Assembly (NCBI GenBank): GCA_017534305.1
Contig: JAFWCU010000016.1
Span: 1 to 64,000, forward strand
DNA: 64,000 nt
Origin: Clostridia bacterium
GTDB taxonomy: Bacteria; Bacillota; Clostridia; TANB77; CAG-465
Reading direction: 5' to 3'
A model generated the notes under the pieces. It made no database searches and was not told where the DNA came from. It was given only the letters and a program-made list of their open reading frames with translations. The first letter of the stretch is position 1, and every line of letters starts with the position of its first letter. Positions 166 to 7,809 of this stretch are shown piece by piece. Position numbers and translations under genes: made by a program.

Positions 166-390
166 ATGATATTTGATTATAATAAATTATGGAAATTAAT
201 GATTGATAAAAAAATCAATAAAACTGAACTTTGTAAGGAAGCAAAAGTAAGCACTAATGCGATGGCAAAAATGGGAAGAAACGAATCAGTACCACTAGAA
301 ACTTTGGCAAAGATATGTGATATTTTAAAATGCGATTTAAATGATATTGTAGAAATCAAAAGAAAGGAAGATGAAAATGGAAACAACTAA
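166..390 (+). CDS. small Cro/C1-type (XRE) HTH regulator
   Basis: The product is a 74-residue protein made almost entirely of one HTH_XRE domain; the helix-turn-helix lies around residues 18-45 (KTELCKEAKVSTNAMAKM). Such proteins bind palindromic operators as dimers. It is preceded by GGAAGG and overlaps the next gene (mod) by several bases, so the two are translationally coupled. Small regulators directly before restriction-modification genes often act as controller proteins that delay nuclease expression. The perfect palindrome at 79-93 is the obvious target. The family is clear; the role as controller is inferred from context. A stray HTH gene with no link to the RM genes is less likely given the overlap. 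Confidence 0.8.
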   Translation: MIFDYNKLWKLMIDKKINKTELCKEAKVSTNAMAKMGRNESVPLETLAKICDILKCDLNDIVEIKRKEDENGNN

Positions 391-2086
391 CCTATCTAAA
401 ATTAGAAGAGATAAAATGTTAAATACAATTAGTGAAATTAAGAAAGGTATAACCGATGAACAAACTCTTACTAACTTATCTATGATTGAAAATGAACTTA
501 CTAAAAAGAAATATGGTCTAATTTGGGAAGAACATGAGGAACGCGTTGATAAAGAGTTAGAAACGCAAATACCTACTTTTGAAGATGTTAAAGAAAAAGA
601 AATAATTTCTAATCCTGATGATAAATTTAATTTTTTATTAGAGGGAGATAATTTGCATAGTCTTTATCTTTTAGAAAAAACTCATAAGGAAAAAATAGAT
701 GTTATATATATTGATCCACCTTATAATACTGGAAGCAACGATTTTATTTATAATGATAAAATTGTTGACGAAGAAGATGGTTATAAACATTCTAAATGGT
801 TATCCTTTATGGAAAAAAGATTAAGAATAGCAAAAAATTTACTTAGTGATAAGGGAATAATATTAATTTCTATTGATGATAATGAAATTGCACAATTAAA
901 ATTGCTATGTGATGATATTTTTAATGAAATAAATAGAATTTCAATTCATCATATTCAAGTACGATATGCTGAAAAATCATTGGCAGATGGTAAATCAGTT
1001 AAACCAGTAATGGAATATGTTTTAGTTTATGCAAAAGATGCAAGTCAATTTAAAATAAATTTACCAAAAGAAGAATATACAGACGCTAGTTTTATATATG
1101 AGATTAAAGAAATTTCAGATGGAATATCTATTAAAAATAAAGATAATACAGAATTAAAAATATTTAAGCCTGGTGAATGGACAATTGAGAAAAAAGAACA
1201 GTCAAATATAAATTTACTTAAAGAAACATGGGTATCTGGAACAATTTATTCAAAAATGTCATATGGTCAAGTTGTTAGAAAATATATCGAGCCTCGTTAT
1301 AGTATAGACGGATTTGGATGTTTATATAAAGTAATTGGGCGTGGTGATGATGGATTAGGTTACAGATATTATGTTGGTCCTCAAAAAAAAGGTTCTACTA
1401 GATGTAAAATGTATTCCGGTATGCCATTATCTCGAGTCGAAGAAATTAATTCACAAAATGGTTCTTTTAGAGAGGTTCCTATTGCAAATTCAATAAATTT
1501 TGCTGCTGATTTTGGTAATATTCGTCATGAAGGAAATATGCCATTTAATAGTGGTAAAAAACCTGTCAAGATGTTAAAAGAATTAATAAATTATCATACC
1601 AATAAAAATGCTATTATTCTTGATTTTTTTGCAGGTTCTGGGAGTACTGCACAAGCAGTATTAGAATTAAATAATGAAGATAATGGTAATAGACAATTTA
1701 TTTTATGCACAAATAATGAAAATAATATTTGTGAAGAAATTACATATAAAAGAATCAAAAATGTTATTGATGGATATGGAAAATATAAGCCTTTAATTAC
1801 AAATTTAAAATATTATAAGTGCACTTATATTCCAAGAATAAATACCGAAAATGAAAATCTGCATAATAATTTGCTTATTAATATTAAAAACCTTATTCAA
1901 TTAGAAAATGGTATTGAGATTGATGATAATAAAATAAGAGTATATTTAGATGAAGATGAATTAGATAAATTTAGTAAAAATCAAAACGAATTAGATATAT
2001 GTGAAAAATTATATATTTCATCTGATATACTACTAACGCAAATGCAAGAAATATATTTAAAAATAATAACGTTGAAGTGTATATAA
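377..2086 (+). CDS. mod: type III restriction-modification DNA methyltransferase (Mod), 3' end frameshifted
   Basis: This is the modification and specificity subunit of a type III RM system, which transfers a methyl group from AdoMet to adenine. DPPYNTG (motif IV, about residue 113) comes before DFFAGSGST (motif I, about residue 416), the order of beta-class adenine methyltransferases; the segment between them would carry target recognition. ATG 377 is preferred over ATG 371 because AAGGAAG ends at 370. The frame stops at 2084-2086 with an unusual tail. The -1 frame just before it encodes a typical Mod C-terminus (VEVYIIPEYYFEDEI) that runs to 2130 and overlaps the Res start. The slip point is TTTAAAA (2056-2062). 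Either one A was lost or a -1 ribosomal frameshift makes full-length Mod. Confidence 0.9.
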   Translation: METTNLSKIRRDKMLNTISEIKKGITDEQTLTNLSMIENELTKKKYGLIWEEHEERVDKELETQIPTFEDVKEKEIISNPDDKFNFLLEGDNLHSLYLLEKTHKEKIDVIYIDPPYNTGSNDFIYNDKIVDEEDGYKHSKWLSFMEKRLRIAKNLLSDKGIILISIDDNEIAQLKLLCDDIFNEINRISIHHIQVRYAEKSLADGKSVKPVMEYVLVYAKDASQFKINLPKEEYTDASFIYEIKEISDGISIKNKDNTELKIFKPGEWTIEKKEQSNINLLKETWVSGTIYSKMSYGQVVRKYIEPRYSIDGFGCLYKVIGRGDDGLGYRYYVGPQKKGSTRCKMYSGMPLSRVEEINSQNGSFREVPIANSINFAADFGNIRHEGNMPFNSGKKPVKMLKELINYHTNKNAIILDFFAGSGSTAQAVLELNNEDNGNRQFILCTNNENNICEEITYKRIKNVIDGYGKYKPLITNLKYYKCTYIPRINTENENLHNNLLINIKNLIQLENGIEIDDNKIRVYLDEDELDKFSKNQNELDICEKLYISSDILLTQMQEIYLKIITLKCI

Positions 2087-2130
2087 TACCAGAATATTAT
2101 TTTGAAGATGAAATTATGGAGGTAATGTAA
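2056..2130 (+). other. T_TTA_AAA slippery heptamer and -1 frame extension of mod
   Basis: In the mod frame the codons are TAT TTA AAA, so bases 2056-2062 form a canonical X_XXY_YYZ slippery heptamer. Slipping back one base continues through NNNVEVYIIPEYYFEDEIMEVM to the TAA at 2128-2130, whose last A is the first base of the Res start codon. The extension looks like a normal Mod C-terminus and restores the usual mod/res stop-start overlap. I see no Shine-Dalgarno-like stimulator in the 15 bases upstream. A plain single-base deletion in the A-run, or a sequencing error, is equally compatible. Confidence 0.55.
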
Positions 2131-4328
2131 TGCAAGGAATTAGTTTAAAAAAGTTTCAAATAGATACAGTTAATAAATTATTAGATGCAACTAGTATTGG
2201 AACTAAAAAAGAAGTATTAGTACAAGCACCTACTGGATCAGGTAAAACTATAATATTACTTTCTTATATTGAAGAATATTTTAAAGAAAATAAAAACACT
2301 TTATTTGTTTGGCTAACTCCAGGTAAAGGAGATTTGGAAGAACAAAGTAGAAAGAAAATGTTAAAATTCTTGCCTCATCATAAAACACAAACTATACAAG
2401 ATGTTTTATTACAGGGATTTGAAGAAAAATCAACTGCATTTATCAATTGGGAAACTATCACTAAAAAAGGTAATAATGCCCTAAAAGAAGCAGAAAGAAA
2501 AAATCTATATGAAAGAATACACGAGGCTCACAACTCAGGTTATAAGTTTATTGTTATAGTTGATGAAGAACATCTAAATAAAACAGTAAAAGCAGAAAGT
2601 ATTATTGAATATATGAATCCAGATTACATTGTTAGAGTTAGTGCAACTACTAAAACTAACAAAGAAGCAGAATATATTGAAATAGATGAATTAGATGTTA
2701 TTAACTCTGGTTTAATTACAAGAGCGTTATATATAAATGAAAATGTTTCAAATGCCTCTACTCTATCAAATGAACATGAATATTTACTAGATTTAGCAAT
2801 AGAAAAAAGAAAAGCAATAAAACAAGAATATATGAAATTAGGCGTACAAGTTAATCCTTTAATTATTATTCAAGTACCAAGTAAATCAGATGATTTAGTA
2901 AAAATGATTGAAACTACCCTAGAAGAAAAAGGTTATGATTATACTAAACAAAATCTTGCAATTTGGCTTTCTGATAGAAAAGAAAATATAGAGAATATTG
3001 AAGATAATGAATCACTACAAGCAATACTTATAATGAAACAAGCAATATCAACTGGTTGGGATTGCCCTCGTGCTAAAATACTTGTTAAACTTCGTGATAA
3101 TATGAGTGAAGATTTTGAAACTCAAACTATTGGAAGAATTAGAAGAATGCCACAAGGACATCACTATGATAATGTTTTGCTTGATAATTGTTACCTTTAT
3201 ACTTTTGATGAAAAGTATGAAGAATCAGTTAAACAAGAATTAGGTAATAATGCTTATGATACAAAGGTTATATTTTTAAAAAATGAATATAAAAACTTCA
3301 CATTAAAGAAACTATCTTTCGATAATAACTTTGATGGATTTGATGAAAGAGAAACTTTTAATATACTACATAATTTTTATATAGAGAAATATAAATTAAC
3401 TTCTAAAAAGAAAGATAATAAGACTACATTAGAAGCAAATGGCTATATTTTTAAAGATACTATTGAAAATTATATAGTACAAGATAAGATTGTTAGAATT
3501 AATTCAGATGAATTAGAAAATGCTAACAGGATTAAAGTTGAATCTATTGTTACTACAAATAAAAATGGTTTTGAGTTAAGACATGCTATAAATGAAATAG
3601 CATCTAAAATTGGAATGCGTTATGATAGAACAAGATTAATGCTCGAAAGAATGTTTTGGAAACAAAAGTTATTTACTAAAAAGTTTGTAGATTTAACATT
3701 AACTGAATTTTATGCTTTCGTTATTAATAATGTTGATTTATTAAAATCAGATTTTAGTGAAGCAGTATCACAAAAAGCAAGACAAATGAAAATGAAATTT
3801 GAAGAACTTAAAGAAATTGATTGGCACTTACCTCAAATGGATTATATAAAATATGACCCTAAAATGAAAGATACTACTATATATGAAAAATCAGCATATA
3901 TCAATTACCCTAATAGTACAATAAAATCTAAAAGTGAGAGAATGTTTGAATTCTTCTGTGAAAATAATGATAATATCAAATGGTTCTATAAAAATGGTGA
4001 ATCATCAAGTGATTATTTTTCAATAGTTTATGTTGATGCAGTTAATCATAAATGGCACTTCTATCCTGATTTTATTGTATGTGATAAAAATAATAAGATA
4101 TGGATTATTGAAACTAAAGGTGGAGAAAATGCTGATGGTAAATCTAAAAATATAGATATTAAAGTAGAAAATAAATTTGAAGCACTTAAAGAATATTCTA
4201 AGAGATATAATGTCAATTGGGGATTTGTTAGAGATTACGATAAGAATGAGCAATTATACTTTTGTAATACAGAGTATACAGAAGACATGGAAAATGATAA
4301 TTGGGAATTATTAAAAAATATATTTTAG
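2130..4328 (+). CDS. res: type III restriction endonuclease subunit Res (helicase-nuclease)
   Basis: The 732-residue protein is the ATP-dependent translocase and nuclease partner of Mod. It has Walker A APTGSGKT (about residues 33-40), a DEEH Walker B box (about 145), the SF2 segment SATTKTN, a motif VI-like QTIGRIRRMP, and a C-terminal PD-(D/E)xK nuclease (YPDF about 645, ETKG about 661). The length is at the short end for type III Res subunits. It starts in the stop codon of the -1 frame of mod, the usual arrangement for a mod-res pair, with GGAGG upstream. All key residues are present, so it is probably active. Cleavage would require Mod and two inversely oriented unmodified sites, as known for the family. 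Confidence 0.92.
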   Translation: MQGISLKKFQIDTVNKLLDATSIGTKKEVLVQAPTGSGKTIILLSYIEEYFKENKNTLFVWLTPGKGDLEEQSRKKMLKFLPHHKTQTIQDVLLQGFEEKSTAFINWETITKKGNNALKEAERKNLYERIHEAHNSGYKFIVIVDEEHLNKTVKAESIIEYMNPDYIVRVSATTKTNKEAEYIEIDELDVINSGLITRALYINENVSNASTLSNEHEYLLDLAIEKRKAIKQEYMKLGVQVNPLIIIQVPSKSDDLVKMIETTLEEKGYDYTKQNLAIWLSDRKENIENIEDNESLQAILIMKQAISTGWDCPRAKILVKLRDNMSEDFETQTIGRIRRMPQGHHYDNVLLDNCYLYTFDEKYEESVKQELGNNAYDTKVIFLKNEYKNFTLKKLSFDNNFDGFDERETFNILHNFYIEKYKLTSKKKDNKTTLEANGYIFKDTIENYIVQDKIVRINSDELENANRIKVESIVTTNKNGFELRHAINEIASKIGMRYDRTRLMLERMFWKQKLFTKKFVDLTLTEFYAFVINNVDLLKSDFSEAVSQKARQMKMKFEELKEIDWHLPQMDYIKYDPKMKDTTIYEKSAYINYPNSTIKSKSERMFEFFCENNDNIKWFYKNGESSSDYFSIVYVDAVNHKWHFYPDFIVCDKNNKIWIIETKGGENADGKSKNIDIKVENKFEALKEYSKRYNVNWGFVRDYDKNEQLYFCNTEYTEDMENDNWELLKNIF

Positions 4329-4341
4329 CGAGGATATATAA

Positions 4342-5979
4342 ATGTATATTAGTAAAATAAAAATACATAACTTTAAATGCTTTAAAGATTATGAATTATC
4401 TTGTAATCCACAATTAAATATTTTAGTTGGAATGAATGATATTGGTAAATCTACTATATTAGAAGCAATACATTTGTGTTTAACTGGTTTCTTTCGTGGA
4501 AAATATCTGAAAAATAATCTAACACAAGATGTCTTTAATAATGATTGTATTAAAAATTATTTAGACAATATAAAATCTGATGCTAATACTCCATTGCCGT
4601 ATTGTAGTATTGAATTATATTTTCAAGATGCAGACCCTATGCTCTTAGGTAAAGAAAATTCAGATAATGAAAATGTTGCATGCATAACTTATAAAATAAA
4701 GTTTGCTTCAAAATATTGCGAAGATTACGAAATATATAAATCACTTGGCAACCCATATTCACTACCAATAGAATATTATGATATAGAATGGATTAATTCT
4801 GCTGGTAAAGATGTTACAGGTAGAACTATCCCTTATAAATCAATTTTAATAGATACTGATTCATTCATGAGAAATAATAATGATGTACAAATCTCCAGAA
4901 TTATTGAAGAAAATTTAGAGGAAAAAGAATTGGTAGGTATTTCTCAATTGTATAGAAAGATGAATGATAACTTTATAAATGATGAAATTATGACAAACAT
5001 TAATAAAAAACTTAGCCAAAATGCTCATATATTGAATACAACCATACAACTAGATACTGAATCATTGAATCAATCAGATTGGGAAAAATCTGTAATAACA
5101 AGAATAAATGCTACTCCATTTGATTTTGTTGGTAAAGGAACACAAGCAGCAATAAAAATAGAATTGTCTTTAACAAGTGGAAAAGCTGATAAATCTTCAA
5201 TTATTTTAATTGAAGAACCAGAAAACCATTTAACATATTCTAAAATGAATAAATTAATTAGTGAAATAACAAAATTAAATAAAGAAAAGCAAATATTTAT
5301 AACTACACACAGTAGTTTTGTTGCTAATAAACTTAATATTAAAAACTTAATTTTACTCTCTGATAACAAAAACACTTCATTTTCAAAACTGACACCTGAA
5401 ACAATTAATTTTTTTGAAAAGAAGCCTGGATATGATACTTTGAGACTTCTACTATGCAAAAAAGCAATATTAGTTGAAGGTGATGCTGATGAACTAATAG
5501 TGCAAAAAGCATATCTTAACAAAAATGGTATATTGCCTATAGAAAATGATATTGATGTAATTTCTGTTGGAAATACTTTTTTAAGGTTTTTAGAAATATC
5601 TACTCTTTTAAAAAAGAAAACTATTGTAGTAACAGATAATGATGGCGATATAGAACAATTAAAAAATAAATATGAAAACTATCTAGGAAAAAATGAAAAA
5701 GATTTTATAAAAATTTGTTATGACAATGAAACTCATATAGGACAGGGAAATTTAAAATCAAAAAATGGTGGAACATTTAATTATGATACATTAGAACCAT
5801 GTATGCTAAGAGTAAATAATTTAGAAATATTAAATGAAATTTTGGAAACAAATAAATCTTCAGATGATGAATTAATTTACTATATGGTAAACAACAAAAC
5901 TGAATGTGCGTTAAAAATTTTTGATACCACTAAAGATATAAAATTTCCAAAATATATAGAGGATTCGATAAATGAATAA
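4342..5979 (+). CDS. OLD-family ATPase/TOPRIM nuclease, GajA-like
   Basis: The 545-residue protein joins an ABC/SMC-type ATPase to a TOPRIM nuclease. Visible motifs are Walker A GMNDIGKS (about residue 30), Walker B IILIEEPENH (about 290), a TTHSS H-loop, then TOPRIM VEGDADE (about 379) and VTDNDGD (about 432). It starts 13 bases after res and overlaps by 8 bases a UvrD-like helicase gene. OLD nuclease followed by UvrD-like helicase is the Gabija (GajA-GajB) layout of class 2 OLD proteins. GajA nicks DNA and is restrained by nucleotides in the known system. Length is close to known GajA proteins. Whether this pair is true Gabija or a relative needs a tree. Confidence 0.85.
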   Translation: MYISKIKIHNFKCFKDYELSCNPQLNILVGMNDIGKSTILEAIHLCLTGFFRGKYLKNNLTQDVFNNDCIKNYLDNIKSDANTPLPYCSIELYFQDADPMLLGKENSDNENVACITYKIKFASKYCEDYEIYKSLGNPYSLPIEYYDIEWINSAGKDVTGRTIPYKSILIDTDSFMRNNNDVQISRIIEENLEEKELVGISQLYRKMNDNFINDEIMTNINKKLSQNAHILNTTIQLDTESLNQSDWEKSVITRINATPFDFVGKGTQAAIKIELSLTSGKADKSSIILIEEPENHLTYSKMNKLISEITKLNKEKQIFITTHSSFVANKLNIKNLILLSDNKNTSFSKLTPETINFFEKKPGYDTLRLLLCKKAILVEGDADELIVQKAYLNKNGILPIENDIDVISVGNTFLRFLEISTLLKKKTIVVTDNDGDIEQLKNKYENYLGKNEKDFIKICYDNETHIGQGNLKSKNGGTFNYDTLEPCMLRVNNLEILNEILETNKSSDDELIYYMVNNKTECALKIFDTTKDIKFPKYIEDSINE

Positions 5980-7093
5980 TAATCTTTTAATTGCAGGAGC
6001 AGGAACAGGTAAAACAACTTTTATTATTAATAAGGCTTTAACTCGACAAAATAGAGTTTTAATTACAACATACACAATTAAATGTAGAAAAGAAATAGAA
6101 GAACAAATAATTTCTAAAAAAGGTTATATTCCAAATAATATTGTAGTACAAACTTGGTTTTCCTTTTTATTAGAACATGGAATTCATCCATATAAGAAAG
6201 ATTTGGGTATTAAAGAGGTAAATGGTTTAAATTTTGTAAATGGTAAATCAGGAATAAAATATATAAATAAACAAGGTATTCCAATTTGCTATTCAGAAGA
6301 AGACTTTGATAAATTTTATTTTGATGATAACAAAAATGTTTTCTCTGATAAATTATCTAAACTTGTATTAAAAATTAACGAAGCATCAAATAATTCCGTA
6401 TTTGACAGATTATCAAAAATTTTTGATACGATATATATTGATGAAGTACAAGATTTAGTTGGGTATGATTTAGAAATAGTTAAAAAGATATCCGAAAATC
6501 AAAATAACTTATTTTTAGTTGGAGATCCAAGACAAAAGGTTTATGACACACATGTAGATTCAAAATTTAAAAAGTACAATAATGGAAATATAGATGAATT
6601 TATAAAAGATAAATGTAAACAATCAAATTTTTATATAGATACCACAACTTTAAATACATGCAGGAGATGTCATAAAGATATTGTAAAATTTATGAACGAT
6701 TTTTATAAAAAATATGATAATCTTCTAGCAAATGAAAAATCATACAATCAACATCAGGGCATATTTGTTGTAAGAAGTAATGATGTAAGTATATATTTAG
6801 AAAAATATTGTCCTATACAACTTAGATATAATAAGACTAAAAAAGTTGATATTAATTTTAAATTTTTGAATTATAAAGAGGCAAAAGGATGTACATATGA
6901 TAGAACTCTAATATATCCAACAAAAGATTTAGAAAACTACTTAAAAAATAAAAATGATATATCAAAAATAAATACAAAAAACGCTATTTATGTTGCACTA
7001 AGCAGAGCAGTAAATAGTGTTGCAATAGTTTATGATGGAAAAGTTAATGAAAAAGTAAATATTAAAGTTTGGGAGGAAAGTAATGAACAATAA
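5972..7093 (+). CDS. UvrD/Rep-like helicase, GajB-like, compact
   Basis: An SF1A helicase core in 373 residues: motif I GAGTGKT (residues 9-15), Ia ITTYTIKC, II YIDEVQDL (about 157), III LVGDPRQKVY, IV NTCRRC, V KEAKGCTYD, VI YVALSRA (about 341). Every ATPase/helicase motif is present, yet the protein is well short of typical GajB (about 490 residues), so the 1B/2B insertions must be small. It overlaps the OLD gene by 8 bases and the next gene by 11, which points to strict co-translation. In Gabija the helicase joins GajA in a large complex and is thought to sense or respond to nucleotide depletion and DNA ends. That role is inferred here. Confidence 0.83.
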   Translation: MNNNLLIAGAGTGKTTFIINKALTRQNRVLITTYTIKCRKEIEEQIISKKGYIPNNIVVQTWFSFLLEHGIHPYKKDLGIKEVNGLNFVNGKSGIKYINKQGIPICYSEEDFDKFYFDDNKNVFSDKLSKLVLKINEASNNSVFDRLSKIFDTIYIDEVQDLVGYDLEIVKKISENQNNLFLVGDPRQKVYDTHVDSKFKKYNNGNIDEFIKDKCKQSNFYIDTTTLNTCRRCHKDIVKFMNDFYKKYDNLLANEKSYNQHQGIFVVRSNDVSIYLEKYCPIQLRYNKTKKVDINFKFLNYKEAKGCTYDRTLIYPTKDLENYLKNKNDISKINTKNAIYVALSRAVNSVAIVYDGKVNEKVNIKVWEESNEQ

Positions 7094-7643
7094 AGATAGT
7101 TTAATTAATAATATATTAAATTTTTTAGAAAATAATGAAAAAGTAGTTTTAATTACTGGGACTAATCAATATGAAAAACATAAAACGGTTATAGCAATAC
7201 TTAATAAATATTGCCCTAAATCCAAAATTTTGTTTAGAACAAATTCTATGTCTAATATATATGATGAATCATTTTTAGGATGGACTGGATATTTAAAAAA
7301 GAAGATTAAATCTGGAGAAACTTTCAAAATTTCTAAAAATTATTATCAAGTAGACTCTTTTAACACAGAACGAACATGGTACCAAACAGATATTAATTTT
7401 GATTATGCTATATTGTATCCTTTAGATGCTTGTCTTAGAAATAATAGTTTAGAGAAAGTATTAAATAATCTTTTAAATGAAAAAAATATAAAAAAGATAT
7501 TTTTAATCTCATGGACAGATTCAAAATACTACAATTATGAAAAATTTTCTCACTATTACTCTCAAAGGTTTATATGTGATGCATTAGAAGAAGATCCAGA
7601 ATATCATAAAAGAGTGTTGAATAACATCAATAATATTCATTAA
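7083..7643 (+). CDS. unknown protein with degenerate P-loop, third gene of Gabija-like module
   Basis: I do not recognise this 186-residue family. Its N-terminal half alternates hydrophobic strands and helices like a P-loop NTPase: strand KVVLITG, then GTNQYEKH (residues 26-33), which matches GxxxxGK[ST] except that the second Gly is Glu and the final Ser/Thr is His. Later strands are KILFRTN, YAILYPLDA (position of Walker B) and KKIFLISWTD (position of sensor 1). Nucleotide hydrolysis looks unlikely, though binding is possible. It overlaps the helicase gene by 11 bases and is the last gene of the operon. A regulatory or sensor subunit of the OLD-UvrD pair is the simplest reading, and is inference only. 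Confidence 0.6.
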   Translation: MNNKDSLINNILNFLENNEKVVLITGTNQYEKHKTVIAILNKYCPKSKILFRTNSMSNIYDESFLGWTGYLKKKIKSGETFKISKNYYQVDSFNTERTWYQTDINFDYAILYPLDACLRNNSLEKVLNNLLNEKNIKKIFLISWTDSKYYNYEKFSHYYSQRFICDALEEDPEYHKRVLNNINNIH

Positions 7644-7690: not shown

Positions 7691-7756
7691 GAGCGTTATG
7701 GTTCGTAAGTTGTTGCTTAATCGCTCCAATTTTTTTTTGCCCATTTTTAATGGGCA
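7691..7756 (+). terminator. tandem intrinsic terminators ending the defence operon
   Basis: GAGCG (7691-7695) pairs with CGCTC (7722-7726), with further pairing inside, and is followed by a run of nine to ten T. Directly after it GCCCAT/ATGGGC (7739-7744 and 7750-7755) forms a second hairpin before ATATTTT. Together they close the operon that starts at 166. Confidence 0.7.
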
Positions 7757-7779
7757 TATTTTAATCAGTAACGAAAAGA

Positions 7780-7809
7780 AGAGTAGTACAACAAAGTACT
7801 ACTCTTTTT
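7780..7809. terminator. bidirectional terminator between convergent units
   Basis: A perfect 10-bp stem, AGAGTAGTAC/GTACTACTCT (7780-7789 and 7796-7805), is followed by TTTT on the plus strand. It lies just past the stop of the minus-strand ABC exporter, so it can serve both directions. The T-run is better on the plus strand. Confidence 0.7.

What the first reader, a model, noticed from the sequence alone, without database searches (positions are those of the whole stretch)
7083..7643. Third component of the OLD-UvrD module: a P-loop-like protein with broken Walker A
Canonical Gabija has two genes. This third gene overlaps the helicase gene by 11 bases. The protein shows the strand order of a P-loop fold, with GTNQYEKH where GxxxxGK[ST] is expected and a Walker-B-like YAILYPLDA. 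It could be a nucleotide sensor or inhibitor for a system known to respond to nucleotide levels.
Basis: partly seen in the sequence, partly recalled or inferred. Interest (0 to 1): 0.7.

Follow-up and report, generated by a model that had tools for sequence, protein, structure and literature searches.

The report
P-loop-derived companion of defence systems
A small protein encoded right behind a two-gene anti-phage system (Gabija) belongs to an undescribed family whose nucleotide-binding fold has been rebuilt in a consistent way, and which sits next to many unrelated bacterial defence systems and inside phages, so it is probably a general helper or a free-standing defence gene rather than a third part of Gabija.

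Summary
The ORF at 7083-7643 is real: 186 aa, good ribosome-binding site, 11-base overlap with gajB, last gene of a co-directional HTH-Mod-Res-GajA-GajB operon. The motifs are not merely decayed: in 36 non-redundant homologues the Walker A site reads GT[HN]Qx[EKQ]KH (Lys kept, second Gly never present, Ser/Thr replaced by His) and the Walker B acids are always Tyr-Pro, while other positions near the ligand edge are nearly invariant; dN/dS is 0.12-0.33. "Third component of Gabija" is not supported. Only 3 of 33 aligned homologues sit by OLD-UvrD pairs, of two Gabija lineages; others sit beside type III R-M, SIR2-HerA/DRT8, AbiL/HerA, a Lamassu-type ATPase, TIR or HD-CE genes, alone, or in prophages including SPbetaL4. 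Seven other OLD-UvrD pairs inspected lack it. The family (PHROG 36795, function unknown) has no Pfam, NCBIfam, PADLOC or PDB relative by sequence. Best reading: a general defence/phage accessory with a rebuilt ligand site, partner-promiscuous or autonomous. Biochemical function is inferred, not shown.

The parts
7083..7643 (+). the gene: 186-aa P-loop-derived protein, PHROG 36795 family
   Evidence: ORF; homologues; PHROG match E 4e-33; AF2 model pLDDT 89.4, pTM 0.84
7071..7076 (+). ribosome-binding site GGGAGG, inside the end of gajB
   Evidence: sequence
7158..7181 (+). P-loop position, GTNQYEKH (residues 26-33): Lys32 and His33 nearly invariant, second Gly never present
7395..7430 (+). Walker B strand, NFDYAILYPLDA (residues 105-116): Tyr112-Pro113 in 36 of 36 in place of Asp-Glu
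7509..7520 (+). SWTD (residues 143-146), at the sensor-1 / motif III position; Asp146 in 36 of 36
7578..7613 (+). C-terminal signature DALEEDPEYHKR (residues 166-177)
5972..7093 (+). gajB, short UvrD-type helicase (373 aa)
   Evidence: PADLOC PDLC00148 GajB E 3.6e-117
4342..5979 (+). gajA, OLD ATPase-TOPRIM nuclease (545 aa)
   Evidence: PADLOC PDLC00102 GajA E 6.7e-178; OLD-like TOPRIM in Pfam
2130..4328 (+). type III restriction subunit Res (732 aa), same operon
   Evidence: Pfam ResIII, PADLOC REase_III
371..2086 (+). type III modification subunit Mod (571 aa), same operon
   Evidence: PADLOC MTase_III E 3.3e-115
166..390 (+). Cro/C1-type HTH regulator, first gene of the operon
   Evidence: Pfam HTH_26; a 45% identical HTH precedes a family member and Mod in L053
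7738..7809 (+). two terminator-like hairpins that close the operon

Best explanation
The gene encodes a single RecA-like P-loop domain whose nucleotide site has been rebuilt: Walker Lys kept, Mg-binding Ser/Thr changed to His, second Gly lost, Walker B Asp-Glu changed to Tyr-Pro, with new near-invariant Arg52, Asp91, Trp99, Lys138, Asp146, Asp166, Glu170, Tyr174 and His175. It is not a core Gabija subunit. It is a mobile accessory of Gram-positive defence islands and temperate phages that is expressed from whatever defence operon or prophage spot it lands in and works alone or with many partners. The mechanism I think most likely: it binds a nucleotide-like ligand or nucleic-acid end at the rebuilt site and uses that state to back up, gate or limit DNA-targeting defence. 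Shown: the fold (prediction), the conserved altered site, purifying selection, the promiscuous linkage. Inferred: ligand binding and any effect on phage.
For: Fold: AF2 pLDDT 89.4, pTM 0.84; best structural matches all P-loop/RecA (SF2 helicases, large terminases), Z 12.9 over 152 residues, 454 chains with Z 8 or more; Foldseek E 3.2e-4 to a terminase. Rebuilt site invariant in 36 non-redundant members. dN/dS 0.12-0.33. Promiscuous linkage: two Gabija lineages, type III R-M, SIR2-HerA + DRT8, AbiL + HerA-like protein, LmuB + PIN, AlbA + TIR, HD-CE/HATPase, REase-HEPN, Abi_alpha, often with 4-22 bp spacing or overlap. Alone in phages and on chromosomes. The tree needs several partner changes.
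Against: No biochemical or phage data exist. Nothing shows that a nucleotide is bound, and Tyr-Pro at the Walker B site argues against ordinary ATP hydrolysis. Type III-linked members form one clade (95/78), which could mean real partner specificity there. Defence genes cluster anyway, so adjacency alone may be hitchhiking. Of 23 non-redundant bacterial loci (window included) 10 show no recognised defence gene next door. No control set of distant genes was scanned.
Confidence: 0.5

Rival explanations
1. A dedicated third subunit or regulator of this Gabija system: it senses nucleotides or restrains GajAB.
For: 11-base overlap with gajB. A second Gabija lineage (L049, L054, L060) has a family member 10-14 bp upstream of gajA. 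Those members and the window's group together weakly. In 335 genomes of one order the L054-type GajA and the family occur in the same two genomes.
Against: Only 3 of 33 aligned homologues sit by OLD-UvrD. Six same-subfamily pairs and one L054-type pair lack it. 71 plasmid records hold this GajA, 3 hold the family, no shared record seen. The two linked Gabija lineages are distant and gene order differs. The two genomes with the L054 type carry near-identical loci, hence one cassette.
Confidence: 0.15
2. A free-standing defence gene (effector or sensor) that merely travels in defence islands and prophages, with no link to its neighbours' activity.
For: Solitary copies on chromosomes and in variable prophage spots; changing partners.
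Against: 4-base overlaps and 10-14 bp spacings with Mod or GajA, and a single clade of type III-linked members, suggest coupled expression that is kept over time.
Confidence: 0.25
3. A counter-defence or self-immunity protein of phage origin, co-opted in defence cassettes to limit self-damage.
For: Present in an SPbeta-like phage at a variable spot near the recombination directionality factor and upstream of terminase genes in Paenibacillus/Bacillus prophages; often first gene of the defence operon.
Against: One of 50,697 phage records carries it. Copies are split in another SPbeta-like prophage (L016/L029) and in L057 next to the same HerA-like partner as in L051, which is hard to square with essential immunity.
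Confidence: 0.15
4. An active NTPase, phosphotransferase or nuclease using a non-canonical metal site (His33, Asp91, Asp146, Asp166/Glu170, His175). This overlaps with the readings above, as it concerns chemistry rather than role.
For: Many near-invariant acidic and histidine residues that the secondary-structure order places at strand ends on the P-loop side.
Against: No coordinates were available to measure clustering; no known enzyme with this residue set was matched.
Confidence: 0.15

Closest known systems
Gabija (GajA OLD nuclease + GajB UvrD helicase)
   Same: the two genes before it are GajA and GajB by PADLOC; translational coupling
   Different: Gabija is two genes; seven other OLD-UvrD pairs inspected lack the third; homologues mostly lie elsewhere
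SF2 helicase RecA1 domains and phage large-terminase ATPase domains
   Same: predicted fold and order of motif positions (P-loop, Ia, Ib, II, III)
   Different: single domain with no RecA2; second Gly, Ser/Thr and Walker B acids replaced in the whole family; no sequence similarity found
PHROG 36795 (unknown function)
   Same: all 33 aligned members match; the window protein at E 4e-33
   Different: no function is assigned; the link to bacterial defence operons is not part of the entry
Type III restriction-modification
   Same: four homologues lie beside or near Mod genes, and the window gene shares its operon with Mod-Res
   Different: not a known R-M subunit; also found far from R-M

Membership tests
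Gabija, as a core component | present with most gajA-gajB pairs | tested here: not met
   absent from seven inspected OLD-UvrD loci; none of the 3 plasmids with the family was seen among the listed ones of 71 plasmid records with this GajA
Gabija, as a core component | homologues mainly linked to OLD-UvrD | tested here: not met
   3 of 33 aligned members
Gabija, as a core component | required for defence or bound to GajAB | not testable with these tools
   needs bench work
P-loop NTPase fold | P-loop sheet with a helix starting at the P-loop | tested here: met
   AF2 model and structural matches up to Z 12.9
P-loop NTPase, catalytic | Walker A GxxxxGK[ST] | tested here: not met
   GT[HN]Qx[EKQ]KH in the family; no Gly at the sixth position, His in place of Ser/Thr
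P-loop NTPase, catalytic | Walker B hhhhD[E] | tested here: not met
   Tyr-Pro in 36 of 36 at the equivalent place
P-loop NTPase, catalytic | binds or hydrolyses NTP | not testable with these tools
   needs an assay
SF1/SF2 helicase | two RecA domains | tested here: not met
   186 aa, one domain
PHROG 36795 | profile match | tested here: met
   33 of 33 members; window protein E 4e-33
known PADLOC defence family | profile match | tested here: not met
   no match at E 1
Gabija inhibitors Gad1/Gad2 | sequence or fold similarity | tested here: inconclusive
   no significant match to PDB sequences; no direct comparison was made

The most novel reading that the evidence does not exclude
An undescribed, partner-promiscuous add-on of bacterial immunity: a pseudo-ATPase RecA domain with a new invariant ligand site that plugs into Gabija, type III R-M, SIR2-HerA and other DNA-targeting systems and into prophages, tuning or triggering them through one shared signal.
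Probability: 0.25. Interest if true: 0.8.

Novelty: new variant of a known kind. Interest (0 to 1): 0.52.

Why it matters
If the family binds one ligand and acts with many unrelated systems, that ligand would be a shared signal of infection (or of safety) across Gabija, type III R-M, SIR2-HerA and AbiL, which is a directly testable question. Even as a free-standing gene it is an unannotated defence-associated family with clear residues to mutate, and it warns against adding subunits to Gabija from one locus alone.

Tried and rejected
Profile search of Pfam, NCBIfam, PADLOC and PDB with the protein or family: nothing significant. hhalign of the family profile against terminase and GajB profiles: no similarity, so the kinship with helicases/terminases rests on fold only. 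Weak matches in same-genus genomes (L018-L020) are ComEC-type metallo-beta-lactamase proteins and L007 is a response regulator (judged from their sequences); rejected. The window's short GajB (373 aa) made me ask whether the third protein supplies a missing domain; rejected, because equally short GajB proteins occur without it. One broad alignment was too diverse for the pattern search. Papers: no description of a third Gabija gene or of SPbetaL4's copy found.

Full report
Observation. The ORF at 7083-7643 encodes 186 aa, starts with ATG six bases after GGGAGG, and overlaps the end of gajB by 11 bases. It is the last of six co-directional genes with tight junctions: HTH 166-390, Mod 371-2086, Res 2130-4328, GajA 4342-5979, GajB 5972-7093 and this gene. 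Two terminator-like hairpins follow at 7738-7756 and 7776-7809. PADLOC identifies GajA (PDLC00102, E 6.7e-178), GajB (PDLC00148, E 3.6e-117) and type III Mod/Res, but gives nothing for the third protein. The island seems strain-variable: the nearest relative with the right-hand flank (G414, L086) matches the window only from 7774 on at 92% identity and has other genes to the left. The window starts at a contig end, so the left border is unknown.

Family. Searches in viral contigs, genomes, plasmids and phages gave about 50 loci, nearly all from Firmicutes or their phages. It is rare: 3 of 398 sampled genomes of the phylum, counting the window's own and one false hit, 2 of 335 of one order, 1 of 50,697 phage records, 3 of 72,556 plasmids. 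All 33 members of alignment A5 match PHROG 36795, function unknown. No other library has it. Six close pairs give dN/dS of 0.12-0.33, so the gene is under purifying selection.

Structure. AlphaFold2 with A5 gives pLDDT 89.4 and pTM 0.84: strand 21-25, loop, helix 32-43, strand 48-53, strand 86-92, strand 105-111, strand 135-142, strand 161-164, helix 172-185. The top VIA-align matches are RecA-like P-loop domains: SF2 helicases, NAT10/TmcA-type helicase modules, large terminases, Type ISP LlaGI (Z 12.3-12.9 for the best, over 150-175 residues). Foldseek agrees. No sequence-level kinship with terminases or GajB could be shown.

The altered site. Across 36 non-redundant members position 26 is Gly (35), 32 Lys (34, one Arg), 33 His (34), 31 never Gly, and 112-113 Tyr-Pro in all 36. 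Lys138 and Asp146 occur in all 36, Arg52, Asp91, Trp99 and Asp166 in 35, Tyr174 in 34, His175 in 33. By the order of strands these residues mostly fall at or just after strand ends on the P-loop side; I had no coordinates to measure distances. My reading is a rebuilt binding site, not a decayed one. Ligand binding is inference. A clade containing L009, L056, L043 and L058 carries an extra C-terminal CxxC...CxxC zinc-ribbon-like part, which hints at contact with nucleic acid or protein.

Neighbours. Window: Gabija and type III R-M. L049, L054, L060: a different Gabija (PDLC00080/PDLC00131 for L049) with the family gene 10-14 bp upstream of gajA and a Fic gene after gajB. L048, L052, L053: 4-base overlap to 14 bp upstream of type III Mod; L050: after a HKD+SNF2 helicase and one more gene, with Mod a few genes on. 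L009: SIR2-HerA before and DRT8 after. L051: AbiL/RloB before, HerA-like membrane protein after. L046: LmuB-type ATPase and PIN protein. L036: AlbA and TIR. L042: HD-CE/HATPase. L047: REase-HEPN. L012: Abi_alpha. Others are alone on chromosomes (L035, L037, L038, L044) or in prophages upstream of terminase or in SPbeta-like phages. Of 23 non-redundant bacterial loci 13 have a recognised defence-type gene adjacent or in the same operon; this is my own count and has no distance-matched control. In SPbetaL4 the gene lies in a variable stretch after yotB that is occupied by other small genes in SPbeta, SPR, SPbetaL6 and SPbetaL8.

Gabija link. Six OLD-UvrD pairs of the window's subfamily (L066-L071) have no family member, nor has one L054-type pair (read from its annotation and the plasmid search). 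71 plasmid records carry this GajA and 3 carry the family; none of the 3 was seen in the listed GajA records (some records unlisted). In the tree the window's gene groups weakly with L049, L054 and L051, inside a well supported clade (100/97) that also holds type III-, Lamassu- and HD-CE-linked members; the type III-linked members form one group (95/78) and all labels together need 14 changes. So the link is real but neither exclusive nor required.

Mechanism. Most likely it is a general accessory that binds a nucleotide-like ligand or a nucleic-acid end through the rebuilt P-loop and acts alone or with several DNA-targeting systems (0.5 for this broad reading; function steps inferred). Rivals are a free-standing defence gene (0.25), a Gabija-specific subunit (0.15), a counter-defence or immunity protein (0.15) and a non-canonical enzyme (0.15, overlapping with the others). 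Gabija's response to nucleotides comes from the literature (PMC8136825, title and abstract); nothing here ties the third protein to it.

Noticed in passing
window 166-7643: Type III Mod-Res and Gabija lie in one co-directional six-gene run under an HTH gene, an unusual joining of two defence systems in one probable operon.
   Followed up: partly
window 7774 / L086: Synteny with the nearest relative breaks at 7774; the defence island is absent there. GC is 23-26% inside and mostly 27-30% to the right.
   Followed up: yes
L009:8515-9282, L056, L043, L058: Family members with an extra C-terminal zinc-ribbon-like part (CxxC...CxxC).
   Followed up: partly
L009:4803-11338: SIR2-HerA, a family member and a DRT8-type reverse transcriptase in a row.
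   Followed up: partly
L004:7453-9495: A 680-aa protein overlapping the family gene by 13 bases in Priestia pBEH5, no Pfam or PADLOC match; possible new partner.
   Followed up: partly
L016/L029:5986-6543, L043, L057: Split copies of the gene in an SPbeta-like prophage, on an archaeal-labelled MAG contig and in a MAG next to the HerA-like partner.
   Followed up: no
L043: A family member on a contig binned as Thorarchaeota; possibly a binning error.
   Followed up: no
L048:5675-8320 and L050:5024-8284: SNF2-type helicases (DrmD-like; HKD+Snf2) just upstream of the family gene and type III Mod, hinting at hybrid R-M systems.
   Followed up: partly
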